A DNA stretch of 64,000 bases from Sacculina carcini (Eukaryota > Arthropoda > Thecostraca > Sacculinidae): assembly GCA_916048095.2 (NCBI GenBank), contig OU696582.1, forward strand, positions 8,226,270-8,290,269, written 5' to 3'. The position numbers and the translations under genes were made by a program. This document shows, in pieces, positions 9,967-63,184 of the stretch (its first letter is position 1; every line of letters starts with the position of its first letter). The notes beneath the pieces were generated by a model. It did not search any database, was not told the origin of the DNA, and was given only the letters and a program-made list of their open reading frames with translations.

Positions 9967-11447
9967 ATCCAGCGTGGCGACAAGTTCAACTTGTTGAGCA
10001 CAGCACACACGTCAAAATATGAGTTGTTAGCCGCTTCTCCCATCTTGTCACTGAACCAGTTGGTAATGCGGTCAATAGACCGTCCATCTACGGACCGTCT
10101 ATTTCTAGACAGAGGTCTATGTCGATTTGTGGCCGCTTCCACTGTAGAACATGTCACATTGTATTTTCCTTCCTGTGTTCCAAGCTCCAATCGTGCGTGA
10201 ATATAACCACCTTCTCTAGAACACAATTGGCCGTAATTTCTTACTTTCTCCCAAAATGTTCGATCAAAAGGAGCGGCCACGCAACCACAGGAAACAGCAC
10301 ATTCCCATTCCCGAAGTGTTGCCCAATTGGTGCAACCTTCACTCGATGGTTCAATCAACATCAAGGATCGATAATCCGCCGCAAACGTGAAAGTCGACCT
10401 ACAATCACCTCTGATTGCCACATTGCGACAATCCCAGTCCGTGTTGTCGGACATGGGATCGATCCGCCAATGTCCAGTTGCATTACAGTTCCGAATGCAC
10501 ATTGCCGACAAAGCAAAAACCAGTCCGATTTTCTGAACAAGAGTGATTCTGTTGTGCCTAATCCTGGCACGCTCAAAAGAATCCCGCTGGTTTTTCCTCA
10601 TTGCCCAAGGACGAGTGATGTCAAACTCAGCGAATCTGGCTACTCGTCGTCGCACCGGGGCGGGTTTTCGCTCGATCTCATCATGTTTGAGTTCCAAGCT
10701 ACATTCTGGTTGTTGTACGTCTTTCCAAGGTGCCCAGGTCGAAACGAATCTGTGCTCCTTCTTGACTTTTGGTTTAAGCAGTTGGCGTACTGCTTCCCTA
10801 GCCACTCCGATGTCTTGACCATGTATCCAATCCTTGCCGGACACTGCAATCGGCTTGGGTAGACGAGGATCTTTCACAATCCCAGCCTCTTGAGCGTTCC
10901 AAGTAGCGGCATCAAGAACTTTTCCAACAACTCTTTTAGCCGCCATCATGCGTACCTTATGGTATCGCTTTTTGGGCATACTGAACAATTTCCGGACGTC
11001 CATCCATTCTGGCAATCCTGCCAGCCACCAAAAACCGGCTTTTTCTTGCAGGTTTTCCTTGCTGCGTTCTTTTTCCAATCGATCGATCTTATGCTGAGCC
11101 AACATAGATTGATGTTTGCGGGCCTTCCGAACCTTCTCCTTCTTCTTTCTTTCTTTTCCCGAATCCAAGGTTTTCCATTTCAAGCCGGCAACATACTTAG
11201 GCTTGGCTGATTTCCTGTCGGTGTATTTGAAAGACCGACAGATTGACTGGTTCAGATTGATAAGGAAGCAGGTTCCTACCGCATTCCAGTACCACGCATC
11301 CCAGTCGCGATCGACTTCGACGGCTGGTTCAAACTGCATACCTTCAGGAGTGTCACGTGTGGACAGACCGAAGCTCTTTGCAGCTGCAAAAGATTGTCTC
11401 AGTTTTTTGTCCTGAGCTAGACGCACTTTATCTCCTCCGTTTTTCAT
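9967..11447 (-). pseudogene. Virus-like structural ORF, copy 0, 3'-truncated
   Basis: Begins at the ATG at 11447 and keeps residues 1 to about 494 of the 650-codon ORF. It stops just before the first membrane hairpin, where the sequence changes to GT repeat at about 9967. The frame stays open through microsatellite as far as 9744, but that part is foreign. See 16213-18165 for the domains. Confidence 0.75.
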
Positions 11448-11547
11448 TGTTGTATTCTTAATACGCGATCGAAAAGGGAGGAGATAAAGTGCGTCTAGCT
11501 CAGGACAAAAAACTGAGACAATCTTTTGCAGCTGCAAAGAGCTTCGG
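11368..11547. repeat. 71-bp perfect inverted repeat with 38-bp loop, unit 1
   Basis: The left arm 11368-11438 and right arm 11477-11547 are exact reverse complements. The left arm is codons of the virus-like ORF just after its start; the right arm is an inverted copy of them joined to the gag leader. The loop 11439-11476 carries the minus-strand ATG (11447-11445) and a small inner hairpin GTATT-CTT-AATAC. The loop ends TTTTTC / GAAAA can pair too, extending the stem. Confidence 0.97.
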
Positions 11548-11768
11548 AAAGTTCAAACTTTGGCTGCTGTCGACTCGTCTTCGTACACTTTCTGGACAGC
11601 TTCATCGGGAAGACATGAGTTGAATTTTTCGTTTTTTCATTTGAATTTGATTGAATTATGTTATGTATTTTGATTGTTATATTTTCTATCGGTGTGCCCA
11701 AGGCTAGCTTAGTCATATAACCACGCGCTACATCGTTTTTTGTGAATTGTTCCACTTTACGCTTAAGT
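11548..11768 (+). other. Leader upstream of gag-pol, unit 1
   Basis: 221 bp between the right inverted arm and the gag-pol ATG; AT-rich in the middle. No LTR end, tRNA primer-binding site or convincing TATA box could be recognised. Repeated unchanged, apart from one T to C near 47655, in all full units. Confidence 0.5.
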
Positions 11769-14700
11769 ATGGCTGAACCAGATGAATCCAAGGGGTCAGA
11801 TGAGGATCATTTGATTGAGATTAGGTCCCAAGTATGTGGGTCGGAATGTCCAAGTGTAGCCTCGAGTAATGCGCGTTTGGAGAGACTTGCGAAGATCGCC
11901 AGAATAAGAACCGAAAGAGAATATAAACGTAGAGAGTATGAGAAATTGATTGAGATTCAGCGACAGAATATGGAACTAGAGGACTTGCGCTGTGAGAAAG
12001 AGATGCAGGCTACTATGGCTGAATTACAGGTGTTAGAGTCTGTCGAGGAGCCCAAGCCGGATATACCAATGAATATACCGCTAGGATCTCCGCAGTGTGA
12101 TGGTTCCAGTAAAGTGTTAAAGCCGGAAATCGTTGGTGACATTCCCTTGAGATCCGGTGAGATACTGAAGCAAAGTTCTCCCTCTCCAAACAATGATTCA
12201 CGTGGGGATGCTGTAGCGAGCTCTCTTCACCGACTTGCTGATTTGCTTTCAGAACGACACAGTAGAGTGTCTCTTCCTCCTCCGGAGCCAGATGTATTCC
12301 ATGGAGACAGGCTTCAATTTCCGCTATGGTTGCGGTCATTTGAGTCTTGTGTTGAGTCACAGGTGAGTGGTGCTGATTGCCTGTATTATCTGCAGAAATA
12401 TACAGAAGGAGAAGCAAAGGAAATTATCAGAGGGTTTTTAACCGTGAGGACTGGTGAGTCGTTCAGACGAGCGAAGGCACTCCTCGTAGAGAGATATGGT
12501 GATGAAGCGACCACATTTGATGCATTCAGGGAGAAACTGTACAAGTGGCCTGTTATTGATGAGCATGATGGTAGAGCTATAGCGAGGTTCTCTGATTTTT
12601 TGCAGTATTGTCTCAGCTTGTCGGAAGCAGTTCCCGCGCTTGGCTATCTTGATGATCCGAGAGAAAGCCAGCGGCTGCTGAGAAAGCTGCCAGACTCTAT
12701 CGTGCAGAAGTGGGCATTAGAAGTGGACAGTTGGAGAGCCGGAAAACGGTCTTCAGTGTTTATGTATCCACCGTTTCATGTTTTTTGTGAATTCATTCAG
12801 AAAGAGGCACGCCTGGCATGTGACCCAATAACGTCGTTGCAAGCTGTAAAGAGGACACCGCAGGAACGGTCGGAAAGAAATAGACGAGGTCATGTGAGTC
12901 TGTTTACTCAAGCTGATGGTGAACATGAGTTATCGTTCAAATCAAGCGATTTATGTTGTGTCTGTTGCGGAAGTCATGAGACTATATCTTGTCCTGGTCT
13001 TCTCAAAATGAATGTTAAGGAACGGCAGCGTATTGTGATGGAAAAGAGACTGTGTTTTATATGTCTAAAAGGAGGACACGTTTTCAGTAAATGCCCATCA
13101 CAGTATAAATGCAGTGTGTGCAGTGGTCCGCATGCCCATATATTACATCAGGACAGCAGTGAGTTTAAGTGTCCTTGTTGTGACCAGCGACATTACATTT
13201 TGCGTTGTCCACGCTTCAAGTCGCTGTCTATCAAGGAACGTTGGAATCTCGTGAAGTCGGAGGGTCTATGTGCCATCTGCTTTAAACGTGATCATATAGG
13301 CAGTAATTGCACGAGGAAATATTCTTGTACCGTTGACGGCTGTGGAAAGGCACATAGCAGTTTTCTACATTTACCTATGAATCGTGAAACTAATGTCAAA
13401 TCCAGAACCAGTCATTTCACATGTAGTCAGGGTCAAAAACTGGCGCTGCCCATTGTCCCTGTGAGGGTCAGATGTCCCGGATCTGACAATCATGTTGATA
13501 CTTATGCACTCCTTGACTCAGGTTCAAATTCATCTTACTGTACCGAAACCCTTTTCCAAGACGTTTGTGCCGAAGGAAAATCTCGTGCAATTGAGTTGAC
13601 GACTATAACCCAGAGGAAGATGATAATTGAGTCGAAATCGACAAAGCTGGTTCTATCAGACGTGAAGGATACAAACTGTTCTCTCATTTCAGAGGTCACG
13701 GTGAGGCCGTCGTTAAATATTGATCTCTCAGGTTTAGCCTGCGATATCGAGGTTAACAAGTGGCGACATTTGAGTGATATTAGTATTCCGAAACTGGACG
13801 TTGGACAAGTACACCTTTTGATTGGTCAAGATTGTTCCGATCTGTTTATACCTACAGAAATTCGAAGAGGGAGGCCAGGTGAGCCGTATGCAATGAAGAC
13901 TCCTCTCGGATGGGCCATCCATGGTCCTGTAGATGCTGGAATTACTATGAGATCATCGTATTTTGTTCATGGTGGGCATGTTTCGAACAACTTGGCTCGT
14001 ATGTGGGATCTGGAAGATGCGCACTGCGAAAAGACCGGAATGTCCCAGGACGATATGAAGGTGATGGAGTTGTGGAGCAAAAATATAGCATTGGATGGTG
14101 TCCACTACACTTTGAATATTCCATTCAAGGCCGGCAGCCTTTGTTTGCCAGATAATCGTACACTGGCAGTGACCCGCTTGCAGTCGCTAAAGAAGCGTCT
14201 GATCAAGGACCACACATTCAAAGATAGTTATTCCAAGGAAATACAGAAGCTAACTGAAAAGGGTTATGCCGAAGAAGTGCCAATTAGTGATTTGAATCGA
14301 TCAGACGGCAAGGTTTGGTACTTGCCTCATCATTCGGTGGTAAATCCTAGAAAACCGGGTAAGATGCGTGTCGTTTTTGATTGTGCGGCCAAGTACAAGG
14401 GGGTGTCTCTGAATGACTGTGTACATCAGGGTCCTGAGTTGTCTAACAAGTTGATTGGTGTCTTATTGCGATTCCGACAAGGTCCGATCGCGTTCGTAGC
14501 TGATATTGAAGCAATGTTCCATCAAGTTAAAGTCAATTTGAAAGACCGAGATGTGTTGAGGTTTTTGTGGTTCGAAGGCGACGATACCAATGGAGAGTTG
14601 AAAGAATACCGGATGACGTCACACCTATTCGGAGGGAATTGGAGCCCTAGCTGTGCGGCCTACGCACTTCAAGAAGTAGCTCGCGAGTTTGTTAGTGAAT

Positions 14701-16292
14701 ATCCCCCCAGTGTACTAAGCACTATTTTGAGAAATTTCTATGTCGATGATTGCTTAAAGACAGAGAAGTCTGCGTATGCGGCTGTTGAGGTGGCCAAGCA
14801 GCTCATGAAAATACTGTCGTTTCGAGGATTCAAGCTCACAAAGTTTGTCTCTAATTCTGCTGAATTTATGAAAGGTATACCAGAAGAGAGACGGGGAAGT
14901 TGTTATCAATCGCTTAATGTGAGTTTAGAGAAACTCTCGGTACAACGAGCCCTCGGTATGCTTTGGGATGTCGAACTGGACGTTTTCAAATTTGACGTTC
15001 AAATTCAAGAGAAGCCGTACACCAAAAGAGGACTACTTAGCACTTTGAGTACTGTATACGACCCTCTCGGATTTGTCAGTCCCTTTGTGCTGCCAGCAAG
15101 AAGGATGTTTCAGGAACTGTGTCGTCTGGATGTAGGTTGGGATAGCCAATTACCAGAGGACATAATGGAGCAATGGTTGAAGTGGACGAATGATTTTACT
15201 GTTGTTGCCTCCTACAGAGTGCCCAGGTGTGTTAATGCAAGTGATGAGCCTGCAGTAACTTACCAGCTTCACCACTTTTGTGACGCGTCAGAATACGGTT
15301 ACGGTGCCGTTTCGTATATACGTACCGAACATGATGCACACGTTTGTTCTGTCAGGCTGGTTTTGGCCAAGGCCAGGCTGGCACCAATAAAGGGTGCAAC
15401 TATCCCGCGCCTAGAACTGGCTGGTGCAGTCGAGGCAGTCCGATTGGACAATTGTTTAAGATCAGAACTCGATGTTCCTCTTCGTGAATCTGTTTTCTGG
15501 ACGGATAGCACCATTGTACTGTGGTATTTACAGAACAGCGAGAAACGTTTTCAGACATATGTGGCAAATCGAGTAGCCAAGATCTCGGAGAACACGGTGC
15601 AAACTCAATGGAATTACGTCCCCAGTTGCGAGAATCCAGCAGATGATGCCTCTAGAGGACTCACAGCGACAGAGCTTTTAAATAACAGCAGGTGGTTAAA
15701 TGGACCGTCATTTCTGCATTCAACGAGTGATAAGTGGCCGAGACAACCTGCACTGAAATGCGCAGAGCTGTCATGCATTGTGGAAACAAGAAGAGATCCT
15801 GTTGTGTATGCAATCAAGACAGAAGAAGATCATACTGGCAAGTTATTAACCCATTTTTCTTCTTGGCACCGAATGAAAAGAGCTATAGCCTGGATGCTAA
15901 GATTTCGAGCCTTTCTGCGTAAGAAACCTTTTAGTCATGGCTTTTTGTCAGTAGATGAACTAAAAAACTCCGAGAAATGGATTGTTATTTACGCCCAGAA
16001 GTCTTTGAATTCGGATGAAACAAGTATATTGGAGCGATTAGATCCGATGTTGTCAAATCGTGGAGTACTTGTTGTAGGAGGCAGGACTCAGGCCGCGAAG
16101 ATCGAAGATCATGCGAAGCATCAGATAATCTTGCCTGGAGATCACCATGTGTCAAAATGCATACTATATGAAATACATAATCTATTTGGACATTGTGGCT
16201 CAGAGAGAACGCTTACAGAGAGCAGAAAATTGTCTCTTCCATTGGTTTCCAGTCGGGTTCAACGCCTGAAAACTGCACGAGACCATTGTTGA
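11769..16292 (+). CDS. BEL/Pao gag-pol polyprotein, copy 1, integrase-truncated
   Basis: 1,507 codons from ATG at 11769; an open stretch before it starts only with GTG. In order: a charged, probably coiled-coil N-terminus (about 35-90); a DUF1759-type gag core (about 170-330, with FHGDRLQFPLWLRSFE); Cys/His knuckles of CX2CX4HX4C type at about 428 and 501, each preceded by a second Cys-rich finger; an aspartic protease DSG at 583; reverse transcriptase with ADIEAMF (D912) and YVDD (991-994); RNase H with CDAS (D1172), WTDS (D1246) and PADDAS (1292); and the start of the integrase H2C2 finger (HNLFGH, 1470-1475). The order and A17-type protease/RT identify Pao/BEL. The last 20 or so residues are antisense virus-like sequence. 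The integrase core and C-terminal region are missing, so the copy is not autonomous. Unique change: Lys instead of Glu in QLMKIL near 14808. Confidence 0.93.
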   Translation: MAEPDESKGSDEDHLIEIRSQVCGSECPSVASSNARLERLAKIARIRTEREYKRREYEKLIEIQRQNMELEDLRCEKEMQATMAELQVLESVEEPKPDIPMNIPLGSPQCDGSSKVLKPEIVGDIPLRSGEILKQSSPSPNNDSRGDAVASSLHRLADLLSERHSRVSLPPPEPDVFHGDRLQFPLWLRSFESCVESQVSGADCLYYLQKYTEGEAKEIIRGFLTVRTGESFRRAKALLVERYGDEATTFDAFREKLYKWPVIDEHDGRAIARFSDFLQYCLSLSEAVPALGYLDDPRESQRLLRKLPDSIVQKWALEVDSWRAGKRSSVFMYPPFHVFCEFIQKEARLACDPITSLQAVKRTPQERSERNRRGHVSLFTQADGEHELSFKSSDLCCVCCGSHETISCPGLLKMNVKERQRIVMEKRLCFICLKGGHVFSKCPSQYKCSVCSGPHAHILHQDSSEFKCPCCDQRHYILRCPRFKSLSIKERWNLVKSEGLCAICFKRDHIGSNCTRKYSCTVDGCGKAHSSFLHLPMNRETNVKSRTSHFTCSQGQKLALPIVPVRVRCPGSDNHVDTYALLDSGSNSSYCTETLFQDVCAEGKSRAIELTTITQRKMIIESKSTKLVLSDVKDTNCSLISEVTVRPSLNIDLSGLACDIEVNKWRHLSDISIPKLDVGQVHLLIGQDCSDLFIPTEIRRGRPGEPYAMKTPLGWAIHGPVDAGITMRSSYFVHGGHVSNNLARMWDLEDAHCEKTGMSQDDMKVMELWSKNIALDGVHYTLNIPFKAGSLCLPDNRTLAVTRLQSLKKRLIKDHTFKDSYSKEIQKLTEKGYAEEVPISDLNRSDGKVWYLPHHSVVNPRKPGKMRVVFDCAAKYKGVSLNDCVHQGPELSNKLIGVLLRFRQGPIAFVADIEAMFHQVKVNLKDRDVLRFLWFEGDDTNGELKEYRMTSHLFGGNWSPSCAAYALQEVAREFVSEYPPSVLSTILRNFYVDDCLKTEKSAYAAVEVAKQLMKILSFRGFKLTKFVSNSAEFMKGIPEERRGSCYQSLNVSLEKLSVQRALGMLWDVELDVFKFDVQIQEKPYTKRGLLSTLSTVYDPLGFVSPFVLPARRMFQELCRLDVGWDSQLPEDIMEQWLKWTNDFTVVASYRVPRCVNASDEPAVTYQLHHFCDASEYGYGAVSYIRTEHDAHVCSVRLVLAKARLAPIKGATIPRLELAGAVEAVRLDNCLRSELDVPLRESVFWTDSTIVLWYLQNSEKRFQTYVANRVAKISENTVQTQWNYVPSCENPADDASRGLTATELLNNSRWLNGPSFLHSTSDKWPRQPALKCAELSCIVETRRDPVVYAIKTEEDHTGKLLTHFSSWHRMKRAIAWMLRFRAFLRKKPFSHGFLSVDELKNSEKWIVIYAQKSLNSDETSILERLDPMLSNRGVLVVGGRTQAAKIEDHAKHQIILPGDHHVSKCILYEIHNLFGHCGSERTLTESRKLSLPLVSSRVQRLKTARDHC

Positions 16293-18165
16293 TTTGCAAT
16301 GCAACGTTTGGTTTAAGTTCTACAGAAAAAGCACTGGCGGGCGCCGCTGCATGCATAACCAACAACACAACCAACATAACAGCGGCTGGGACTGGACCAG
16401 CAACAACAAACAAAAACAAGAAAATGCAAATTAGGGCCACGGTTCTAATCCGGCCCGTAAAATAATCTACCCCTTCCTTCAAATCTTTCAACCACTCGTT
16501 CGGTTCGTCCGTCTCAAGGTGGGCCTCAGCCACAAAACGCGGCAATCGAGCAGTGCTTCCATCCATAGGTCGAAGTGCGGAAGTGCACGTAGGACCCATC
16601 GCAATCAAACAAACTAAAATGATACCTGCTCCTTTAACGGGACCCACAACGGGCACGACAAATATCGCTCCAGTAAAAAAGACAATCCAGCGTGGCGACA
16701 AGTTCAACTTGTTGAGCACAGCACACACGTCAAAATATGAGTTGTTAGCCGCTTCTCCCATCTTGTCACTGAACCAGTTGGTAATGCGGTCAATAGACCG
16801 TCCATCTACGGACCGTCTATTTCTAGACAGAGGTCTATGTCGATTTGTGGCCGCTTCCACTGTAGAACATGTCACATTGTATTTTCCTTCCTGTGTTCCA
16901 AGCTCCAATCGTGCGTGAATATAACCACCTTCTCTAGAACACAATTGGCCGTAATTTCTTACTTTCTCCCAAAATGTTCGATCAAAAGGAGCGGCCACGC
17001 AACCACAGGAAACAGCACATTCCCATTCCCGAAGTGTTGCCCAATTGGTGCAACCTTCACTCGATGGTTCAATCAACATCAAGGATCGATAATCCGCCGC
17101 AAACGTGAAAGTCGACCTACAATCACCTCTGATTGCCACATTGCGACAATCCCAGTCCGTGTTGTCGGACATGGGATCGATCCGCCAATGTCCAGTTGCA
17201 TTACAGTTCCGAATGCACATTGCCGACAAAGCAAAAACCAGTCCGATTTTCTGAACAAGAGTGATTCTGTTGTGCCTAATCCTGGCACGCTCAAAAGAAT
17301 CCCGCTGGTTTTTCCTCATTGCCCAAGGACGAGTGATGTCAAACTCAGCGAATCTGGCTACTCGTCGTCGCACCGGGGCGGGTTTTCGCTCGATCTCATC
17401 ATGTTTGAGTTCCAAGCTACATTCTGGTTGTTGTACGTCTTTCCAAGGTGCCCAGGTCGAAACGAATCTGTGCTCCTTCTTGACTTTTGGTTTAAGCAGT
17501 TGGCGTACTGCTTCCCTAGCCACTCCGATGTCTTGACCATGTATCCAATCCTTGCCGGACACTGCAATCGGCTTGGGTAGACGAGGATCTTTCACAATCC
17601 CAGCCTCTTGAGCGTTCCAAGTAGCGGCATCAAGAACTTTTCCAACAACTCTTTTAGCCGCCATCATGCGTACCTTATGGTATCGCTTTTTGGGCATACT
17701 GAACAATTTCCGGACGTCCATCCATTCTGGCAATCCTGCCAGCCACCAAAAACCGGCTTTTTCTTGCAGGTTTTCCTTGCTGCGTTCTTTTTCCAATCGA
17801 TCGATCTTATGCTGAGCCAACATAGATTGATGTTTGCGGGCCTTCCGAACCTTCTCCTTCTTCTTTCTTTCTTTTCCCGAATCCAAGGTTTTCCATTTCA
17901 AGCCGGCAACATACTTAGGCTTGGCTGATTTCCTGTCGGTGTATTTGAAAGACCGACAGATTGACTGGTTCAGATTGATAAGGAAGCAGGTTCCTACCGC
18001 ATTCCAGTACCACGCATCCCAGTCGCGATCGACTTCGACGGCTGGTTCAAACTGCATACCTTCAGGAGTGTCACGTGTGGACAGACCGAAGCTCTTTGCA
18101 GCTGCAAAAGATTGTCTCAGTTTTTTGTCCTGAGCTAGACGCACTTTATCTCCTCCGTTTTTCAT
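16213..18165 (-). CDS. Flavivirus-like structural polyprotein fragment, copy 1
   Basis: 650 codons from ATG at 18165; upstream open sequence has no ATG. Residues 1-301 are very basic (KERKKKEKVRKARK at 99-112; RRR near 266) and Trp-rich, capsid-like but about three times longer than a flavivirus capsid. A hydrophobic signal/anchor follows (302-320). The ectodomain has eight Cys (340, 349, 372, 383, 387, 389, 409, 433) and NAT/NVT glycosylation sites. RNRR at 448-451 is a furin-type site. Two membrane hairpins come next (about 493-528 and 575-608), then PASA/FS, a possible signalase site at 612, and about 30 further residues before the joint with antisense pol. The C, pr, M order suggests a flavi-like RNA virus inserted as DNA; another enveloped virus is possible. 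No envelope fusion protein or replicase is present. Its 3' end overlaps gag-pol by 80 bp. Confidence 0.55.
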   Translation of the reverse strand: MKNGGDKVRLAQDKKLRQSFAAAKSFGLSTRDTPEGMQFEPAVEVDRDWDAWYWNAVGTCFLINLNQSICRSFKYTDRKSAKPKYVAGLKWKTLDSGKERKKKEKVRKARKHQSMLAQHKIDRLEKERSKENLQEKAGFWWLAGLPEWMDVRKLFSMPKKRYHKVRMMAAKRVVGKVLDAATWNAQEAGIVKDPRLPKPIAVSGKDWIHGQDIGVAREAVRQLLKPKVKKEHRFVSTWAPWKDVQQPECSLELKHDEIERKPAPVRRRVARFAEFDITRPWAMRKNQRDSFERARIRHNRITLVQKIGLVFALSAMCIRNCNATGHWRIDPMSDNTDWDCRNVAIRGDCRSTFTFAADYRSLMLIEPSSEGCTNWATLREWECAVSCGCVAAPFDRTFWEKVRNYGQLCSREGGYIHARLELGTQEGKYNVTCSTVEAATNRHRPLSRNRRSVDGRSIDRITNWFSDKMGEAANNSYFDVCAVLNKLNLSPRWIVFFTGAIFVVPVVGPVKGAGIILVCLIAMGPTCTSALRPMDGSTARLPRFVAEAHLETDEPNEWLKDLKEGVDYFTGRIRTVALICIFLFLFVVAGPVPAAVMLVVLLVMHAAAPASAFSVELKPNVALQINNGLVQFSGVEPDWKPMEETIFCSL

Positions 18166-18265
18166 TGTTGTATTCTTAATACGCGATCGAAAAGGGAGGA
18201 GATAAAGTGCGTCTAGCTCAGGACAAAAAACTGAGACAATCTTTTGCAGCTGCAAAGAGCTTCGG
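18086..18265. repeat. 71-bp inverted repeat, unit 2
   Basis: Identical in arms and loop to 11368-11547. Virus-like copy 1 starts in its loop at 18165. Confidence 0.97.
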
Positions 18266-18486
18266 AAAGTTCAAACTTTGGCTGCTGTCGACTCGTCTTC
18301 GTACACTTTCTGGACAGCTTCATCGGGAAGACATGAGTTGAATTTTTCGTTTTTTCATTTGAATTTGATTGAATTATGTTATGTATTTTGATTGTTATAT
18401 TTTCTATCGGTGTGCCCAAGGCTAGCTTAGTCATATAACCACGCGCTACATCGTTTTTTGTGAATTGTTCCACTTTACGCTTAAGT

Positions 18487-45037: not shown

Positions 45038-45066
45038 TGTTGTATTCTTAATACGCGATCGAAAAG

Positions 45067-47575: not shown

Positions 47576-47796
47576 AAAGTTCAAACTTTGGCTGCTGTCG
47601 ACTCGTCTTCGTACACTTTCTGGACAGCTTCATCGGGAAGACATGAGTTGAATTCTTCGTTTTTTCATTTGAATTTGATTGAATTATGTTATGTATTTTG
47701 ATTGTTATATTTTCTATCGGTGTGCCCAAGGCTAGCTTAGTCATATAACCACGCGCTACATCGTTTTTTGTGAATTGTTCCACTTTACGCTTAAGT

Positions 47797-50700: not shown

Positions 50701-52319
50701 AAGTAGCTCGCGAGTTTGTTAGTGAATATCCCCCCAGTGTACTAAGCACTATTTTGAGAAATTTCTATGTCGATGATTGCTTAAAGACAGAGAAGTCTGC
50801 GTATGCGGCTGTTGAGGTGGCCAAGCAGCTCATGGAAATACTGTCGTTTCGAGGATTCAAGCTCACAAAGTTTGTCTCTAATTCTGCTGAATTTATGAAA
50901 GGTATACCAGAAGAGAGACGGGGAAGTTGTTATCAATCGCTTAATGTGAGTTTAGAGAAACTCTCGGTACAACGAGCCCTCGGTATGCTTTGGGATGTCG
51001 AACTGGACGTTTTCAAATTTGACGTTCAAATTCAAGAGAAGCCGTACACCAAAAGAGGACTACTTAGCACTTTGAGTACTGTATACGACCCTCTCGGATT
51101 TGTCAGTCCCTTTGTGCTGCCAGCAAGAAGGATGTTTCAGGAACTGTGTCGTCTGGATGTAGGTTGGGATAGCCAATTACCAGAGGACATAATGGAGCAA
51201 TGGTTGAAGTGGACGAATGATTTTACTGTTGTTGCCTCCTACAGAGTGCCCAGGTGTGTTAATGCAAGTGATGAGCCTGCAGTAACTTACCAGCTTCACC
51301 ACTTTTGTGACGCGTCAGAATACGGTTACGGTGCCGTTTCGTATATACGTACCGAACATGATGCACACGTTTGTTCTGTCAGGCTGGTTTTGGCCAAGGC
51401 CAGGCTGGCACCAATAAAGGGTGCAACTATCCCGCGCCTAGAACTGGCTGGTGCAGTCGAGGCAGTCCGATTGGACAATTGTTTAAGATCAGAACTCGAT
51501 GTTCCTCTTCGTGAATCTGTTTTCTGGACGGATAGCACCATTGTACTGTGGTATTTACAGAACAGCGAGAAACGTTTTCAGACATATGTGGCAAATCGAG
51601 TAGCCAAGATCTCGGAGAACACGGTGCAAACTCAATGGAATTACGTCCCCAGTTGCGAGAATCCAGCAGATGATGCCTCTAGAGGACTCACAGCGACAGA
51701 GCTTTTAAATAACAGCAGGTGGTTAAATGGACCGTCATTTCTGCATTCAACGAGTGATAAGTGGCCGAGACAACCTGCACTGAAATGCGCAGAGCTGTCA
51801 TGCATTGTGGAAACAAGAAGAGATCCTGTTGTGTATGCAATCAAGACAGAAGAAGATCATACTGGCAAGTTATTAACCCATTTTTCTTCTTGGCACCGAA
51901 TGAAAAGAGCTATAGCCTGGATGCTAAGATTTCGAGCCTTTCTGCGTAAGAAACCTTTTAGTCATGGCTTTTTGTCAGTAGATGAACTAAAAAACTCCGA
52001 GAAATGGATTGTTATTTACGCCCAGAAGTCTTTGAATTCGGATGAAACAAGTATATTGGAGCGATTAGATCCGATGTTGTCAAATCGTGGAGTACTTGTT
52101 GTAGGAGGCAGGACTCAGGCCGCGAAGATCGAAGATCATGCGAAGCATCAGATAATCTTGCCTGGAGATCACCATGTGTCAAAATGCATACTATATGAAA
52201 TACATAATCTATTTGGACATTGTGGCTCAGAGAGAACGCTTACAGAGAGCAGAAAATTGTCTCTTCCATTGGTTTCCAGTCGGGTTCAACGCCTGAAAAC
52301 TGCACGAGACCATTGTTGA
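47797..52319 (+). pseudogene. BEL/Pao gag-pol, copy 6, one-base frameshift
   Basis: ATG at 47797, same domains as copy 1, but the T-run at 48809-48813 has five T instead of six. The gag frame therefore ends at 48858, and the knuckles, protease, RT and RNase H continue in another frame to 52319. The break falls just after the DUF1759-type core. Also a Ser to Tyr change (RKYYC, about 49350). A homopolymer sequencing error would give the same picture. Confidence 0.85.
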
Positions 52320-54192: not shown

Positions 54193-54230
54193 TGTTGTAT
54201 TCTTAATACGCGATCGAAAAGCATGCATCG

Positions 54231-54757
54231 AGCTGTCATGCATTGTGGAAACAAGAAGAGATCCTGTTGTGTATGCAATCAAGACAGAAGAAGATCATAC
54301 TGGCAAGTTATTAACCCATTTTTCTTCTTGGCACCGAATGAAAAGAGCTATAGCCTGGATGCTAAGATTTCGAGCCTTTCTGCGTAAGAAACCTTTTAGT
54401 CATGGCTTTTTGTCAGTAGATGAACTAAAAAACTCCGAGAAATGGATTGTTATTTACGCCCAGAAGTCTTTGAATTCGGATGAAACAAGTATATTGGAGC
54501 GATTAGATCCGATGTTGTCAAATCGTGGAGTACTTGTTGTAGGAGGCAGGACTCAGGCCGCGAAGATCGAAGATCATGCGAAGCATCAGATAATCTTGCC
54601 TGGAGATCACCATGTGTCAAAATGCATACTATATGAAATACATAATCTATTTGGACATTGTGGCTCAGAGAGAACGCTTACAGAGAGCAGAAAATTGTCT
54701 CTTCCATTGGTTTCCAGTCGGGTTCAACGCCTGAAAACTGCACGAGACCATTGTTGA
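54231..54757 (+). pseudogene. pol 3' remnant of mini-unit 2
   Basis: Same extent and joints as 45076-45602. The frame opens with GTG at 54245. Confidence 0.9.
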
Positions 54758-57218
54758 TTTGCAATGCAACGTTTGGTTTAAGTTCTACAGAAAAAGCACT
54801 GGCGGGCGCCGCTGCATGCATAACCAACAACACAACCAACATAACAGCGGCTGGGACTGGACCAGCAACAACAAACAAAAACAAGAAAATGCAAATTAGG
54901 GCCACGGTTCTAATCCGGCCCGTAAAATAATCTACCCCTTCCTTCAAATCTTTCAACCACTCGTTCGGTTCGTCCGTCTCAAGGTGGGCCTCAGCCACAA
55001 AACGCGGCAATCGAGCAGTGCTTCCATCCATAGGTCGAAGTGCGGAAGTGCACGTAGGACCCATCGCAATCAAACAAACTAAAATGATACCTGCTCCTTT
55101 AACGGGACCCACAACGGGCACGACAAATATCGCTCCAGTAAAAAAGACAATCCAGCGTGGCGACAAGTTCAACTTGTTGAGCACAGCACACACGTCAAAA
55201 TATGAGTTGTTAGCCGCTTCTCCCATCTTGTCACTGAACCAGTTGTTAATGCGGTCAATAGACCGTCCATCTACGGACCGTCTATTTCTAGACAGAGGTC
55301 TATGTCGATTTGTGGCCGCTTCCACTGTAGAACATGTCACATTGTATTTTCCTTCCTGTGTTCCAAGCTCCAATCGTGCGTGAATATAACCACCTTCTCT
55401 AGAACACAATTGGCCGTAATTTCTTACTTTCTCCCAAAATGTTCGATCAAAAGGAGCGGCCACGCAAAACAAGAAAATGCAAATTAGGGCCACGGTTCTA
55501 ATCCGGCCCGTAAAATAATCTACCCCTTCCTTCAAATCTTTCAACCACTCGTTCGGTTCGTCCGTCTCAAGGTGGGCCTCAGCCACAAAACGCGGCAATC
55601 GAGCAGTGCTTCCATCCATAGGTCGAAGTGCGGAAGTGCACGTAGGACCCATCGCAATCAAACAAACTAAAATGATACCTGCTCCTTTAACGGGACCCAC
55701 AACGGGCACGACAAATATCGCTCCAGTAAAAAAGACAATCCAGCGTGGCGACAAGTTCAACTTGTTGAGCACAGCACACACGTCAAAATATGAGTTGTTA
55801 GCCGCTTCTCCCATCTTGTCACTGAACCAGTTGGTAATGCGGTCAATAGACCGTCCATCTACGGACCGTCTATTTCTAGACAGAGGTCTATGTCGATTTG
55901 TGGCCGCTTCCACTGTAGAACATGTCACATTGTATTTTCCTTCCTGTGTTCCAAGCTCCAATCGTGCGTGAATATAACCACCTTCTCTAGAACACAATTG
56001 GCCGTAATTTCTTACTTTCTCCCAAAATGTTCGATCAAAAGGAGCGGCCACGCAACCACAGGAAACAGCACATTCCCATTCCCGAAGTGTTGCCCAATTG
56101 GTGCAACCTTCACTCGATGGTTCAATCAACATCAAGGATCGATAATCCGCCGCAAACGTGAAAGTCGACCTACAATCACCTCTGATTGCCACATTGCGAC
56201 AATCCCAGTCCGTGTTGTCGGACATGGGATCGATCCGCCAATGTCCAGTTGCATTACAGTTCCGAATGCACATTGCCGACAAAGCAAAAACCAGTCCGAT
56301 TTTCTGAACAAGAGTGATTCTGTTGTGCCTAATCCTGGCACGCTCAAAAGAATCCCGCTGGTTTTTCCTCATTGCCCAAGGACGAGTGATGTCAAACTCA
56401 GCGAATCTGGCTACTCGTCGTCGCACCGGGGCGGGTTTTCGCTCGATCTCATCATGTTTGAGTTCCAAGCTACATTCTGGTTGTTGTACGTCTTTCCAAG
56501 GTGCCCAGGTCGAAACGAATCTGTGCTCCTTCTTGACTTTTGGTTTAAGCAGTTGACGTACTGCTTCCCTAGCCACTCCGATGTCTTGACCATGTATCCA
56601 ATCCTTGCCGGACACTGCAATCGGCTTGGGTAGACGAGGATCTTTCACAATCCCAGCCTCTTGAGCGTTCCAAGTAGCGGCATCAAGAACTTTTCCAACA
56701 ACTCTTTTAGCCGCCATCATGCGTACCTTATGGTATCGCTTTTTGGGCATACTGAACAATTTCCGGACGTCCATCCATTCTGGCAATCCTGCCAGCCACC
56801 AAAAACCGGCTTTTTCTTGCAGGTTTTCCTTGCTGCGTTCTTTTTCCAATCGATCGATCTTATGCTGAGCCAACATAGATTGATGTTTGCGGGCCTTCCG
56901 AACCTTCTCCTTCTTCTTTCTTTCTTTTCCCGAATCCAAGGTTTTCCATTTCAAGCCGGCAACATACTTAGGCTTGGCTGATTTCCTGTCGGTGTATTTG
57001 AAAGACCGACAGATTGACTGGTTCAGATTGATAAGGAAGCAGGTTCCTACCGCATTCCAGTACCACGCATCCCAGTCGCGATCGACTTCGACGGCTGGTT
57101 CAAACTGCATACCTTCAGGAGTGTCACGTGTGGACAGACCGAAGCTCTTTGCAGCTGCAAAAGATTGTCTCAGTTTTTTGTCCTGAGCTAGACGCACTTT
57201 ATCTCCTCCGTTTTTCAT
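54678..57218 (-). CDS. Flavivirus-like structural fragment, copy 8, internal duplication
   Basis: 846 codons from ATG at 57218. A 588-bp segment is duplicated in frame, so the end of the Cys-rich ectodomain (from CVAAPF), the RNRR site and both membrane hairpins (to the second anchor, ICIFLF) occur twice before the usual C-terminus. One repeat has Thr to Asn (RINNW) near 55244. The second ectodomain piece lacks its N-terminal Cys residues. Confidence 0.55.
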   Translation of the reverse strand: MKNGGDKVRLAQDKKLRQSFAAAKSFGLSTRDTPEGMQFEPAVEVDRDWDAWYWNAVGTCFLINLNQSICRSFKYTDRKSAKPKYVAGLKWKTLDSGKERKKKEKVRKARKHQSMLAQHKIDRLEKERSKENLQEKAGFWWLAGLPEWMDVRKLFSMPKKRYHKVRMMAAKRVVGKVLDAATWNAQEAGIVKDPRLPKPIAVSGKDWIHGQDIGVAREAVRQLLKPKVKKEHRFVSTWAPWKDVQQPECSLELKHDEIERKPAPVRRRVARFAEFDITRPWAMRKNQRDSFERARIRHNRITLVQKIGLVFALSAMCIRNCNATGHWRIDPMSDNTDWDCRNVAIRGDCRSTFTFAADYRSLMLIEPSSEGCTNWATLREWECAVSCGCVAAPFDRTFWEKVRNYGQLCSREGGYIHARLELGTQEGKYNVTCSTVEAATNRHRPLSRNRRSVDGRSIDRITNWFSDKMGEAANNSYFDVCAVLNKLNLSPRWIVFFTGAIFVVPVVGPVKGAGIILVCLIAMGPTCTSALRPMDGSTARLPRFVAEAHLETDEPNEWLKDLKEGVDYFTGRIRTVALICIFLFCVAAPFDRTFWEKVRNYGQLCSREGGYIHARLELGTQEGKYNVTCSTVEAATNRHRPLSRNRRSVDGRSIDRINNWFSDKMGEAANNSYFDVCAVLNKLNLSPRWIVFFTGAIFVVPVVGPVKGAGIILVCLIAMGPTCTSALRPMDGSTARLPRFVAEAHLETDEPNEWLKDLKEGVDYFTGRIRTVALICIFLFLFVVAGPVPAAVMLVVLLVMHAAAPASAFSVELKPNVALQINNGLVQFSGVEPDWKPMEETIFCSL
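54881..56056. repeat. 588-bp direct tandem duplication, first occurrence
   Basis: 54881-55468 and 55469-56056 are near-identical. The joint lies in CGCAAAACAAG, where the two partners share a few bases (CAA), which suggests microhomology. Confidence 0.95.
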
Positions 57219-57256
57219 TGTTGTATTCTTAATACGCGATCGAAAAGCATGCATCG

Positions 57257-57783
57257 AGCTGTCATGCATTGTGGAAACAAGAAGAGATCCTGTTGTGTAT
57301 GCAATCAAGACAGAAGAAGATCATACTGGCAAGTTATTAACCCATTTTTCTTCTTGGCACCGAATGAAAAGAGCTATAGCCTGGATGCTAAGATTTCGAG
57401 CCTTTCTGCGTAAGAAACCTTTTAGTCATGGCTTTTTGTCAGTAGATGAACTAAATAACTCCGAGAAATGGATTGTTATTTACGCCCAGAAGTCTTTGAA
57501 TTCGGATGAAACAAGTATATTGGAGCGATTAGATCCGATGTTGTCAAATCGTGGAGTACTTGTTGTAGGAGGCAGGACTCAGGCCGCGAAGATCGAAGAT
57601 CATGCGAAGCATCAGATAATCTTGCCTGGAGATCACCATGTGTCAAAATGCATACTATATGAAATACATAATCTATTTGGACATTGTGGCTCAGAGAGAA
57701 CGCTTACAGAGAGCAGAAAATTGTCTCTTCCATTGGTTTCCAGTCGGGTTCAACGCCTGAAAACTGCACGAGACCATTGTTGA
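57257..57783 (+). pseudogene. pol 3' remnant of mini-unit 3
   Basis: As 45076-45602, with a private Lys to Asn change (ELNNSEKW, about 57455). Confidence 0.9.
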
Positions 57784-59656
57784 TTTGCAATGCAACGTTT
57801 GGTTTAAGTTCTACAGAAAAAGCACTGGCGGGCGCCGCTGCATGCATAACCAACAACACAACCAACATAACAGCGGCTGGGACTGGACCAGCAACAACAA
57901 ACAAAAACAAGAAAATGCAAATTAGGGCCACGGTTCTAATCCGGCCCGTAAAATAATCTACCCCTTCCTTCAAATCTTTCAACCACTCGTTCGGTTCGTC
58001 CGTCTCAAGGTGGGCCTCAGCCACAAAACGCGGCAATCGAGCAGTGCTTCCATCCATAGGTCGAAGTGCGGAAGTGCACGTAGGACCCATCGCAATCAAA
58101 CAAACTAAAATGATACCTGCTCCTTTAACGGGACCCACAACGGGCACGACAAATATCGCTCCAGTAAAAAAGACAATCCAGCGTGGCGACAAGTTCAACT
58201 TGTTGAGCACAGCACACACGTCAAAATATGAGTTGTTAGCCGCTTCTCCCATCTTGTCACTGAACCAGTTGGTAATGCGGTCAATAGACCGTCCATCTAC
58301 TGACCGTCTATTTCTAGACAGAGGTCTATGTCGATTTGTGGCCGCTTCCACTGTAGAACATGTCACATTGTATTTTCCTTCCTGTGTTCCAAGCTCCAAT
58401 CGTGCGTGAATATAACCACCTTCTCTAGAACACAATTGGCCGTAATTTCTTACTTTCTCCCAAAATGTTCGATCAAAAGGAGCGGCCACGCAACCACAGG
58501 AAACAGCACATTCCCATTCCCGAAGTGTTGCCCAATTGGTGCAACCTTCACTCGATGGTTCAATCAACATCAAGGATCGATAATCCGCCGCAAACGTGAA
58601 AGTCGACCTACAATCACCTCTGATTGCCACATTGCGACAATCCCAGTCCGTGTTGTCGGACATGGGATCGATCCGCCAATGTCCAGTTGCATTACAGTTC
58701 CGAATGCACATTGCCGACAAAGCAAAAACCAGTCCGATTTTCTGAACAAGAGTGATTCTGTTGTGCCTAATCCTGGCACGCTCAAAAGAATCCCGCTGGT
58801 TTTTCCTCATTGCCCAAGGACGAGTGATGTCAAACTCAGCGAATCTGGCTACTCGTCGTCGCACCGGGGCGGGTTTTCGCTCGATCTCATCATGTTTGAG
58901 TTCCAAGCTACATTCTGGTTGTTGTACGTCTTTCCAAGGTGCCCAGGTCGAAACGAATCTGTGCTCCTTCTTGACTTTTGGTTTAAGCAGTTGACGTACT
59001 GCTTCCCTAGCCACTCCGATGTCTTGACCATGTATCCAATCCTTGCCGGACACTGCAATCGGCTTGGATAGACGAGGATCTTTCACAATCCCAGCCTCTT
59101 GAGCGTTCCAAGTAGCGGCATCAAGAACTTTTCCAACAACTCTTTTAGCCGCCATCATGCGTACCTTATGGTATCGCTTTTTGGGCATACTGAACAATTT
59201 CCGGACGTCCATCCATTCTGGCAATCCTGCCAGCCACCAAAAACCGGCTTTTTCTTGCAGGTTTTCCTTGCTGCGTTCTTTTTCCAATCGATCGATCTTA
59301 TGCTGAGCCAACATAGATTGATGTTTGCGGGCCTTCCGAACCTTCTCCTTCTTCTTTCTTTCTTTTCCCGAATCCAAGGTTTTCCATTTCAAGCCGGCAA
59401 CATACTTAGGCTTGGCTGATTTCCTGTCGGTGTATTTGAAAGACCGACAGATTGACTGGTTCAGATTGATAAGGAAGCAGGTTCCTACCGCATTCCAGTA
59501 CCACGCATCCCAGTCGCGATCGACTTCGACGGCTGGTTCAAACTGCATACCTTCAGGAGTGTCACGTGTGGACAGACCGAAGCTCTTTGCAGCTGCAAAA
59601 GATTGTCTCAGTTTTTTGTCCTGAGCTAGACGCACTTTATCTCCTCCGTTTTTCAT
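57704..59656 (-). CDS. Flavivirus-like structural fragment, copy 9
   Basis: 650 codons from ATG at 59656, without the 588-bp duplication. It has Pro to Ser (PRLSKP, about 59069), shared only with copy 10, and a private silent change near 58301. Confidence 0.55.
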   Translation of the reverse strand: MKNGGDKVRLAQDKKLRQSFAAAKSFGLSTRDTPEGMQFEPAVEVDRDWDAWYWNAVGTCFLINLNQSICRSFKYTDRKSAKPKYVAGLKWKTLDSGKERKKKEKVRKARKHQSMLAQHKIDRLEKERSKENLQEKAGFWWLAGLPEWMDVRKLFSMPKKRYHKVRMMAAKRVVGKVLDAATWNAQEAGIVKDPRLSKPIAVSGKDWIHGQDIGVAREAVRQLLKPKVKKEHRFVSTWAPWKDVQQPECSLELKHDEIERKPAPVRRRVARFAEFDITRPWAMRKNQRDSFERARIRHNRITLVQKIGLVFALSAMCIRNCNATGHWRIDPMSDNTDWDCRNVAIRGDCRSTFTFAADYRSLMLIEPSSEGCTNWATLREWECAVSCGCVAAPFDRTFWEKVRNYGQLCSREGGYIHARLELGTQEGKYNVTCSTVEAATNRHRPLSRNRRSVDGRSIDRITNWFSDKMGEAANNSYFDVCAVLNKLNLSPRWIVFFTGAIFVVPVVGPVKGAGIILVCLIAMGPTCTSALRPMDGSTARLPRFVAEAHLETDEPNEWLKDLKEGVDYFTGRIRTVALICIFLFLFVVAGPVPAAVMLVVLLVMHAAAPASAFSVELKPNVALQINNGLVQFSGVEPDWKPMEETIFCSL

Positions 59657-59694
59657 TGTTGTATTCTTAATACGCGATCGAAAAGCATGCATCG

Positions 59695-60221
59695 AGCTGT
59701 CATGCATTGTGGAAACAAGAAGAGATCCTGTTGTGTATGCAATCAAGACAGAAGAAGATCATACTGGCAAGTTATTAACCCATTTTTCTTCTTGGCACCG
59801 AATGAAAAGAGCTATAGCCTGGATGCTAAGATTTCGAGCCTTTCTGCGTAAGAAACCTTTTAGTCATGGCTTTTTGTCAGTAGATGAACTAAAAAACTCC
59901 GAGAAATGGATTGTTATTTACGCCCAGAAGTCTTTGAATTCGGATGAAACAAGTATATTGGAGCGATTAGATCCGATGTTGTCAAATCGTGGAGTACTTG
60001 TTGTAGGAGGCAGGACTCAGGCCGCGAAGATCGAAGATCATGCGAAGCATCAGATAATCTTGCCTGGAGATCACCATGTGTCAAAATGCATACTATATGA
60101 AATACATAATCTATTTGGACATTGTGGCTCAGAGAGAACGCTTACAGAGAGCAGAAAATTGTCTCTTCCATTGGTTTCCAGTCGGGTTCAACGCCTGAAA
60201 ACTGCACGAGACCATTGTTGA
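59695..60221 (+). pseudogene. pol 3' remnant of mini-unit 4
   Basis: Same as 45076-45602, with no protein change. It is the last pol sequence before the gap. Confidence 0.9.
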
Positions 60222-62679
60222 TTTGCAATGCAACGTTTGGTTTAAGTTCTACAGAAAAAGCACTGGCGGGCGCCGCTGCATGCATAACCAACAACACAAC
60301 CAACATAACAGCGGCTGGGACTGGACCAGCAACAACAAACAAAAACAAGAAAATGCAAATTAGGGCCACGGTTCTAATCCGGCCCGTAAAATAATCTACC
60401 CCTTCCTTCAAATCTTTCAACCACTCGTTCGGTTCGTCCGTCTCAAGGTGGGCCTCAGCCACAAAACGCGGCAATCGAGCAGTGCTTCCATCCATAGGTC
60501 GAAGTGCGGAAGTGCACGTAGGACCCATCGCAATCAAACAAACTAAAATGATACCTGCTCCTTTAACGGGACCCACAACGGGCACGACAAATATCGCTCC
60601 AGTAAAAAAGACAATCCAGCGTGGCGACAAGTTCAACTTGTTGAGCACAGCACACACGTCAAAATATGAGTTGTTAGCCGCTTCTCCCATCTTGTCACTG
60701 AACCAGTTGGTAATGCGGTCAATAGACCGTCCATCTACGGACCGTCTATTTCTAGACAGAGGTCTATGTCGATTTGTGGCCGCTTCCACTGTAGAACATG
60801 TCACATTGTATTTTCCTTCCTGTGTTCCAAGCTCCAATCGTGCGTGAATATAACCACCTTCTCTAGAACACAATTGGCCGTAATTTCTTACTTTCTCCCA
60901 AAATGTTCGATCAAAAGGAGCGGCCACGCAAAACAAGAAAATGCAAATTAGGGCCACGGTTCTAATCCGGCCCGTAAAATAATCTACCCCTTCCTTCAAA
61001 TCTTTCAACCACTCGTTCGGTTCGTCCGTCTCAAGGTGGGCCTCAGCCACAAAACGCGGCAATCGAGCAGTGCTTCCATCCATAGGTCGAAGTGCGGAAG
61101 TGCACGTAGGACCCATCGCAATCAAACAAACTAAAATGATACCTGCTCCTTTAACGGGACCCACAACGGGCACGACAAATATCGCTCCAGTAAAAAAGAC
61201 AATCCAGCGTGGCGACAAGTTCAACTTGTTGAGCACAGCACACACGTCAAAATATGAGTTGTTAGCCGCTTCTCCCATCTTGTCACTGAACCAGTTGGTA
61301 ATGCGGTCAATAGACCGTCCATCTACGGACCGTCTATTTCTAGACAGAGGTCTATGTCGATTTGTGGCCGCTTCCACTGTAGAACATGTCACATTGTATT
61401 TTCCTTCCTGTGTTCCAAGCTCCAATCGTGCGTGAATATAACCACCTTCTCTAGAACACAATTGGCCGTAATTTCTTACTTTCTCCCAAAATGTTCGATC
61501 AAAAGGAGCGGCCACGCAACCACAGGAAACAGCACATTCCCATTCCCGAAGTGTTGCCCAATTGGTGCAACCTTCACTCGATGGTTCAATCAACATCAAG
61601 GATCGATAATCCGCCGCAAACGTGAAAGTCGACCTACAATCACCTCTGATTGCCACATTGCGACAATCCCAGTCCGTGTTGTCGGACATGGGATCGATCC
61701 GCCAATGTCCAGTTGCATTACAGTTCCGAATGCACATTGCCGACAAAGCAAAAACCAGTCCGATTTTCTGAACAAGAGTGATTCTGTTGTGCCTAATCCT
61801 GGCACGCTCAAAAGAATCCCGCTGGTTTTTTCCTCATTGCCCAAGGACGAGTGATGTCAAACTCAGCGAATCTGGCTACTCGTCGTCGCACCGGGGCGGG
61901 TTTTCGCTCGATCTCATCATGTTTGAGTTCCAAGCTACATTCTGGTTGTTGTACGTCTTTCCAAGGTGCCCAGGTCGAAACGAATCTGTGCTCCTTCTTG
62001 ACTTTTGGTTTAAGCAGTTGACGTACTGCTTCCCTAGCCACTCCGATGTCTTGACCATGTATCCAATCCTTGCCGGACACTGCAATCGGCTTGGATAGAC
62101 GAGGATCTTTCACAATCCCAGCCTCTTGAGCGTTCCAAGTAGCGGCATCAAGAACTTTTCCAACAACTCTTTTAGCCGCCATCATGCGTACCTTATGGTA
62201 TCGCTTTTTGGGCATACTGAACAATTTCCGGACGTCCATCCATTCTGGCAATCCTGCCAGCCACCAAAAACCGGCTTTTTCTTGCAGGTTTTCCTTGCTG
62301 CGTTCTTTTTCCAATCGATCGATCTTATGCTGAGCCAACATAGATTGATGTTTGCGGGCCTTCCGAACCTTCTCCTTCTTCTTTCTTTCTTTTCCCGAAT
62401 CCAAGGTTTTCCATTTCAAGCCGGCAACATACTTAGGCTTGGCTGATTTCCTGTCGGTGTATTTGAAAGACCGACAGATTGACTGGTTCAGATTGATAAG
62501 GAAGCAGGTTCCTACCGCATTCCAGTACCACGCATCCCAGTCGCGATCGACTTCGACGGCTGGTTCAAACTGCATACCTTCAGGAGTGTCACGTGTGGAC
62601 AGACCGAAGCTCTTTGCAGCTGCAAAAGATTGTCTCAGTTTTTTGTCCTGAGCTAGACGCACTTTATCTCCTCCGTTTT
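60142..62679 (-). pseudogene. Flavivirus-like structural fragment, copy 10, frameshifted and gap-truncated
   Basis: Carries the same 588-bp duplication as copy 8 and the PRLSKP change of copy 9. The T-run at 61826-61831 has six T instead of five, which breaks the frame between the capsid-like part and the signal/anchor. The first codons, including the ATG, are in the N gap. Confidence 0.6.
60345..61520. repeat. 588-bp direct tandem duplication, second occurrence
   Basis: 60345-60932 and 60933-61520, with exactly the same joint as at 55469, 5,464 bp further on. Confidence 0.95.
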
Positions 62680-63179: not shown

Positions 63180-63184
63180 TATCC

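What the first reader, a model, noticed from the sequence alone, without database searches (positions are those of the whole stretch)
9967..62679. Tandem array of a retrotransposon and RNA-virus-like chimera
Each unit joins a BEL/Pao gag-pol to an antisense block with the layout of a flavi-type structural polyprotein. More than 50 kb is built from this one chimera, with almost no divergence. Endogenous viral elements next to LTR retrotransposons are known, but a homogeneous tandem satellite of one chimera is unusual, and the virus-like part appears to be of a little-known group.
Basis: partly seen in the sequence, partly recalled or inferred. Interest (0 to 1): 0.9.

Follow-up and report, generated by a model that had tools for sequence, protein, structure and literature searches.

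The report
Young tandem array of virus-retrotransposon chimeras
A chromosome, probably of an arthropod, carries over 50,000 bases of nearly identical repeats, most of them fusing part of a recently active host retrotransposon to a backwards DNA copy of what looks like an unknown RNA virus, a likely recent fossil of one virus-to-DNA copying accident that then multiplied.

Summary
The array is in the sequence: 52,714 bp (9966-62679), ten units after a truncated first copy, the last cut by a 500-N scaffold gap. It is less uniform than reported: six full 6.7-kb units (F), two 2.4-kb (S), two 3.0-kb (D); S and D lack gag and most of pol.

The host half is an LTR-less piece of a BEL/Pao family with 18 full-query matches of 98-100% outside the window. 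It runs from the LTR/internal boundary to a break in the integrase zinc finger.

The other half is 1,965 bp of foreign sequence, antisense, with a 645-codon open frame and no other DNA match found in the genome. Its first 38 nt form the loop of a 71-bp perfect inverted repeat, as a self-primed (snap-back) cDNA end would. The layout resembles flavivirus C-prM, but no homologue was found, so "flavi-type" is unproven.

Best reading: a chimeric cDNA made by BEL reverse transcriptase switching templates, inserted in a TG microsatellite upstream of a SERCA gene and amplified in tandem, recently. Length beyond the gap, read depth and function are untested.

The parts
9966..62679 (.). whole tandem array, cut at right by the 500-N gap
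   Evidence: self-comparison, unit table, N run
9966..11476 (.). truncated first copy (last 1511 bp of an F unit, foreign part only); left edge abuts a host TG microsatellite
   Evidence: 100% to unit positions 5208-6718; flank
11477..45066 (.). five consecutive full units (F, 6718 bp each)
45067..47504 (.). S unit (2438 bp): foreign nt 1 + 8-nt filler CATGCATC + pol from 15765-equivalent
47505..54221 (.). sixth full unit (6717 bp), 1-nt deletion, gag-pol frame stops at codon 363
54222..57247 (.). D unit (3026 bp): S unit with 588-bp internal duplication
57248..59685 (.). second S unit
59686..62679 (.). second D unit, cut by the gap inside the palindrome loop (18161-equivalent)
18195..18265 (+). 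snap-back copy: sense copy of foreign nt 39-109, 71 bp, identical in six of six F units (example unit)
   Evidence: RNA fold of 18080-18275 -151.7 kcal/mol, z -24.5
18157..18194 (-). 38-nt loop = first 38 nt of the foreign sequence; nt 1 at 18194
18268..22947 (+). BEL/Pao piece of one F unit, from the LTR/internal boundary to the integrase zinc-finger region
18460..23010 (+). gag-pol open frame of that unit (1516 aa), last 63 nt run into the foreign part
   Evidence: domains (neighbouring unit)
16230..18194 (-). foreign RNA-virus-like cDNA, 1965 bp
16231..18165 (-). 645 codons of the foreign frame from ATG: basic part of about 300 aa, hydrophobic stretch (signal, by eye), Cys-rich part of about 125 aa, RNRR site, two-TM module (79 aa), second two-TM module (82 aa), start of next protein
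   Evidence: module borders by eye
62680..63179 (.). 500-N scaffold gap
63180..63191 (+). TATCCGTATGTG, first bases after the gap; the same 12-mer starts at 9944, 22 nt before the array: marks the target site

Best explanation
The unit is a chimeric cDNA. During reverse transcription of a BEL RNA, the enzyme switched from BEL template (break at 16229, in the integrase) to the plus strand of a co-packaged RNA, copied it antisense for 1965 nt to an end (nt 1), folded back on a hairpin there and copied 71 nt of its own product, then jumped, with 2-3 extra A, to the end of the BEL internal region at the LTR boundary. The product was an LTR-less DNA with BEL on both sides of the foreign segment, able to close into a 6.7-kb circle by recombination between BEL parts. 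It entered the germ line at a TG microsatellite and became a head-to-tail array by rolling-circle-type or unequal-exchange amplification. S units arose by loss of 4288 bp starting exactly at the hairpin loop base, sealed with 8 nt of filler; D units by a later 588-bp duplication. Shown: junctions, inverted repeat, unit order, donor family, no second locus found by DNA search. Inferred: template switching, circle, order of events, RNA-virus origin. Unknown: function.
For: Donor BEL family: 18 matches outside the window cover all 500 query residues at 98-100%, 12 in open frames of 1847-1850 aa; 3 of 5 examined LTR pairs are 100% identical over 457-487 bp. The BEL part starts within 1 nt of the LTR boundary in 5 of 5 copies compared at that end and stops at base 16229 against 13 of 14 loci; the match of the 14th ends earlier. 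Snap-back: 71-bp perfect arms, 38-nt loop that itself folds; its last bases (AAAAG) resemble the sense bases they stand in for (AAAAC). No other DNA match of the foreign part found in 264 Mb; open frame. Youth: at 2 of 4680 positions do the five consecutive F units all differ from every BEL locus covering it (19809: 18 loci, from at most 14 copies; 18914: 5 loci). The foreign frame is open in 6 of 6 F units, 2 of 2 S units, the part tested of 1 of 2 D units, and the first copy. Variants and types are shared among neighbours. [quoted passage not shown] template switching proposed (PMC5497376, passages).
Against: No homologue of the foreign protein, so virus origin is indirect; GC by codon position is only mildly uneven (0.53, 0.44, 0.47) and the hydropathy scan did not flag the presumed signal. 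Circle stage not observed. No primer-binding site was identified (20 tRNA genes of the 51 matches listed compared, none complementary over 8 nt), so the meaning of the exact LTR-boundary junction is unsettled. A 29-nt leader is short for a flavivirid (recalled). Right edge and read support missing. A protein-level search for diverged relatives in the host genome did not complete.
Confidence: 0.68

Rival explanations
1. The chimera is a functional retroelement: BEL carrying a captured viral structural gene, like the Pao elements with chuvirus glycoprotein.
For: BEL/Pao elements are known to capture viral glycoproteins (PMC7642597, abstract and passages); both frames are open.
Against: No LTR, no integrase core, foreign gene antisense and ending before an envelope protein, and no dispersed copy of the foreign part found in the genome.
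Confidence: 0.03
2. The foreign stretch is not viral but a transcript from a parasite, symbiont or contaminant, or of a host gene missing from the assembly, captured by the same reverse-transcription route (this can overlap with the route of the best explanation).
For: No viral homologue was found in any search.
Against: 645 codons without a stop from nt 30, basic part followed by a hydrophobic stretch, furin-type site and two-TM modules; TpA 0.47 against 0.66 (BEL) and 0.86 (flanks). Composition is only supportive, since open frames themselves lack TA.
Confidence: 0.13
3. The array is over-expanded or misassembled: one or few copies, or an unintegrated circle, joined to the left flank by the assembler (this can overlap with the best explanation of the unit).
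For: Contig ends inside the array at a 500-N gap; the next contig starts with the 12-mer found 22 nt before the array, as an empty allele would; the contig end lies in a palindrome loop.
Against: Units are not copies of one read: SNPs, 1-nt gaps, S and D types with local sharing of variants. The left flank has DOMON-gene exons, so it is host DNA.
Confidence: 0.12
4. The chimera formed by DNA recombination: a single-copy viral insertion near a BEL copy was rearranged, inverted and amplified without any reverse-transcription template switch.
For: Inverted repeats and fillers also arise in break repair; S units look like end joining.
Against: The joins coincide with the natural LTR boundary and with the end of the foreign sequence; no solo foreign insertion was found.
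Confidence: 0.14

Closest known systems
LTR-retrotransposon/RNA-virus hybrid vDNA in Aedes cells (PMC6797480; passages read)
   Same: RNA-virus sequence joined to LTR-retrotransposon sequence, circular DNA preparations, and an integrated CFAV/Ty3 example
   Different: in the passages seen: hybrid reads and an insertion beside LTR and gag; here an LTR-less chimera with resolved junctions, snap-back end and tandem amplification
Non-retroviral integrated RNA virus sequences in mosquitoes (PMC5497376; passages read)
   Same: viral pieces next to Pao/Bel and Ty3 elements; AeBunya1 embedded in a full-length Pao-Bel
   Different: the word 'tandem' does not occur in that main text; here one chimera and its deletion forms make 52.7 kb
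Anakin Pao elements with chuvirus glycoprotein (PMC7642597; abstract and passages read)
   Same: BEL/Pao partner and viral structural protein
   Different: glycoprotein inside LTR-bounded, replicated elements; here antisense, no LTR, one locus found
Circular viral DNA (cvDNA) of insects (review PMC8659333; passages read; primary paper not held)
   Same: reverse-transcribed RNA-virus DNA, linear or circular, homologous to defective viral genomes
   Different: found in infected cells; here chromosomal and repeated
Flavivirus C-prM structural region (recalled)
   Same: order basic protein, signal, Cys-rich segment, furin site, short stem, two TM helices
   Different: basic part about 300 aa rather than about 100, second two-TM module, no detectable sequence similarity

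Membership tests
BEL/Pao LTR retrotransposon (the host part) | Pao-type Peptidase_A17, RT and DUF1759-type gag | tested here: met
   Peptidase_A17 E 8.2e-45 and 8.4e-30, DUF1759 7.2e-10; RVT_1 6.1e-5 but below its curated cut-off
BEL/Pao LTR retrotransposon (the host part) | two LTRs and complete integrase in the array unit | tested here: not met
   unit starts at the LTR boundary and ends in the H2C2 region; the LTRs lie in the genomic relatives
Endogenous non-retroviral RNA virus element | homology to a known RNA virus | tested here: not met
   no credible hit; these collections do not hold all RNA viruses
Endogenous non-retroviral RNA virus element | integrated in host DNA and absent as a normal host gene | tested here: inconclusive
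   left flank is host DNA in the same contig; no other DNA match found; no reads seen
Flavivirus-type structural polyprotein | C - signal - pr - furin site - M with two TM - E order | tested here: inconclusive
   order seen by hydropathy, motif and eye (the signal was not flagged by the scan); only about 30 residues after the second TM module, envelope protein not testable
Flavivirus-type structural polyprotein | sequence or fold similarity to flavivirid proteins | tested here: not met
   no sequence hit; fold could not be judged, pLDDT 42.3 and 46.1
Circular vDNA / cvDNA | viral cDNA joined to retrotransposon sequence | tested here: met
   junctions, assuming the foreign part is viral
Circular vDNA / cvDNA | existence as an extrachromosomal circle | not testable with these tools
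   no reads or circle libraries
Satellite DNA | long homogeneous tandem array | tested here: inconclusive
   52.7 kb, three unit types, single locus, right edge lost in the gap

The most novel reading that the evidence does not exclude
The array is a germ-line concatemer of a circular virus-retrotransposon DNA that now acts as an antiviral small-RNA locus: transcripts in the BEL direction are antisense to the virus and carry a 71-bp perfect hairpin of the viral 5' end, a ready Dicer or piRNA substrate, so a single copying accident may have given a heritable, copy-number-amplified immune memory against a still unknown virus group.
Probability: 0.15. Interest if true: 0.88.

Novelty: new variant of a known kind. 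Interest (0 to 1): 0.68.

Why it matters
How RNA viruses without a reverse transcriptase enter animal genomes is often inferred from old, decayed insertions. Here donor family, foreign segment and joins are almost unmutated, so the likely copying route (jump in integrase, run to an RNA end, snap-back, re-entry at the LTR boundary) can be read base by base. The amplification suggests that such a chimera can seed a tandem array, and the perfect hairpin makes a small-RNA role directly testable. The foreign part may also mark an undescribed virus group.

Tried and rejected
Rejected: a mobile BEL with captured envelope (no LTR, no integrase core, antisense, one locus found). Rejected as evidence: single-sequence AlphaFold models, so no fold search was run; Rfam microRNA matches at the hairpin (E down to 7e-12, all below gathering score), explained by the perfect stem; Pfam matches of the two foreign pieces at E 0.017-0.16, below the curated cut-offs. 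Led nowhere: primer-binding site by pattern (4 of its 78 places, three on C35 and one on C36, checked, no tRNA) and by 20 tRNA genes; the 3455-aa open frame listed at C3, which is a 5'-truncated BEL copy next to a stretch of about 3.1 kb open in all six frames, presumably a tandem repeat. The similarity between the two two-TM modules is weak: 17 of 2000 half-wise shuffles score as high. Literature searches listed no title or abstract that reports such a tandem chimera; two searches listed only 20 of 1,726 and 12 of 42 papers, and only open-licence papers are covered.
Full report
What is there. The window is G000:C16:8226270-8290269 of an unnamed 264-Mb genome in 43 contigs. Self-comparison shows head-to-tail copies from 9966 to 62679, where a 500-N gap starts. 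Cutting after each foreign-end motif gives: a 1511-bp truncated copy; five F units of 6718 bp; S (2438); F (6717); D (3026); S (2438); D (2994, cut by the gap). Against the F unit at 11477 the other five have 4, 3, 3, 2 and 6 substitutions and the last one also a 1-nt gap; one variant is shared by S, F, D, S, D on the right and absent from the first copy and the five F units on the left. That local sharing fits unequal exchange or local duplication and is not what plain copying of one read would give.

Host part. Pfam finds DUF1759 gag, a sub-cut-off RVT_1 and Pao Peptidase_A17. A protein search of the genome with a 500-residue RT/protease piece listed 89 matches (a lower bound, by the tool's note), 6 of them in the array; 18 outside the window cover all 500 residues at 98-100%, 12 of them in open frames of 1847-1850 aa. 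In five copies that I examined as separate 5' and 3' pieces, 3 of 5 LTR pairs are identical over 457-487 bp; the other two match at 96.2% over 498 and 93.2% over 366. The LTR runs TGTAACG...CGTTACA and two copies show 5-bp target duplications, by my reading, where the 3' LTR end motif was found in 4 of 5. The unit's BEL part begins within one base of the LTR/internal boundary in 5 of 5 comparisons, and leaves BEL after base 16229 in the 13 of 14 loci whose match reaches so far. Over 4680 positions only two differences separate all five consecutive F units from every BEL locus covering them (18 loci, from at most 14 copies, and 5 loci). So the BEL donor was close to present-day family members.

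Foreign part. Bases 16230-18194 read antisense. DNA searches of the own genome with its two halves list only places inside this array (22 and 13 matches). The frame has no stop in 645 codons from ATG at nt 30; the other two sense frames have 23 and 39 stops; 0 of 1000 shuffles match. From P0001: basic N-terminal part (70 K+R, 37 D+E in 304 residues), a hydrophobic stretch near residues 334-352 taken by eye as a signal (the hydropathy scan did not flag it), eight Cys at 370-463, RNRR at 478, hydrophobic pairs near 519-561 and 602-640 (the scan flags 519-561 and 615-633). GC by codon position is 0.53, 0.44, 0.47, a weak periodicity. TpA observed/expected is 0.47 against 0.66 in BEL and 0.86 in both flanks, the right one only 821 bp; open frames lower TpA too, so this is only supportive. 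No relative was found in the protein collection (7997 candidates scored, limit E 0.001; 2549 candidates, limit 5; 7520 candidates, limit 1), in viral contigs, PDB sequences (best E 0.31), Pfam or Rfam. AlphaFold gave pLDDT 42.3 and 46.1. Hence: probably an RNA virus, flavi-like layout, family unknown.

The joins. nt 1 of the foreign sequence is at 18194. Directly after it come 71 bases identical to foreign nt 39-109 in sense orientation, in 6 of 6 F units; the loop is 38 nt. The single strand folds at -151.7 kcal/mol against a mean of -47.4 for 200 shuffles, and the loop closes on itself, which would place the cDNA end beside foreign nt 34-38 for self-priming. The last loop bases are AAAAG where the foreign sense strand has AAAAC at nt 34-38, that is a kept terminal mismatch, as expected of a self-primed end (my reading). 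After foreign nt 109 come AAA, the last A possibly the LTR's final base, then the BEL internal region. S units leave at the same base, nt 1, add CATGCATC and enter pol at 15765-equivalent. Because that base is also the base of the hairpin, S can be an independent ligation of the cDNA end or, more simply, a 4288-bp deletion starting at a hairpin cut; I cannot decide. D joins 17000 to 16413 (588-bp duplication).

Site. The left flank carries a DOMON exon (E 3.3e-6, score below the curated cut-off) and an At5g54830-like exon (5.2e-7, above it). After the gap the next contig has a SERCA exon (PDB match E 3.7e-24), with the likely first exon near L079 position 830 by eye. The contig after the gap begins TATCCGTATGTG(TG)n; that 12-mer occurs twice in the window, here and 22 nt before the array. 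So the gap lies at the target: either a duplicated target or an empty haplotype picked up by the assembler. TTAGG x5 is abundant (9866 forward and 10488 reverse overlapping hits; reversed control 5 and 0) and TTAGGG x4 is absent, which suggests an arthropod (recalled rule); the species was not identified.

How it works. The reverse-transcription route and later amplification are given in Best explanation; junctions and copy order are shown, the rest inferred. What the array does now is unknown. If transcribed in BEL direction it would yield antisense foreign RNA and a perfect hairpin, a plausible small-RNA source; the unit has no LTR to drive it, and no expression or small-RNA data were available.

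Comparison. Hybrid LTR-retrotransposon/virus DNA in Aedes cells (PMC6797480, passages), Pao/Bel-associated integrations and proposed template switching (PMC5497376, passages), Pao elements with captured chuvirus glycoprotein (PMC7642597, abstract and passages) and cvDNA (PMC8659333, passages) are the nearest kinds. The mouse IAP-LCMV recombination paper is recalled and was not held. New here, within the searches named in Tried and rejected, is the chromosomal tandem amplification of one LTR-less chimera with a snap-back end.

Against the first version I removed an RNase H claim that one search does not bear out, gave the BEL counts as loci, and added the unflagged signal and the partial paper listings. 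None of these changes the odds. The rivals on non-viral origin and on assembly can overlap with the best explanation, so the odds do not add to one.

Noticed in passing
window 5650-5721 (-): A tRNA match above Rfam's gathering score (48.5 bits) in the left flank; whether it is a gene or a tRNA-derived short repeat was not examined.
   Followed up: no
window 301-595, 2257-2561, 5129-5447; 3665-3881 and 7915-8134: Short repeats, partly inverted, 83-96% identical, in the left flank.
   Followed up: no
window 898-9905 and 63188-63694: Many long CA/TG microsatellites around the array and in the right flank.
   Followed up: partly
G000 C1 4.3-10.9 Mb (only the first places are listed): Interstitial TTAGG blocks inside contigs; about 20,000 overlapping hits in the whole genome.
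   Followed up: no
G000:C35 3.35-4.45 Mb: 17 of 78 places of the 12-mer CAAAGTTTGAAC cluster on C35, three at 2615-base spacing, suggesting another tandem repeat; no tRNA at the three C35 places checked.
   Followed up: partly
L081 1-3100 (G000:C3:11903300-11906400): About 3.1 kb open in all six frames, presumably a tandem repeat, directly before a 5'-truncated BEL copy.
   Followed up: partly
window 62679: The contig ends inside the 38-nt palindrome loop of the last unit, which may be why assembly broke there.
   Followed up: no
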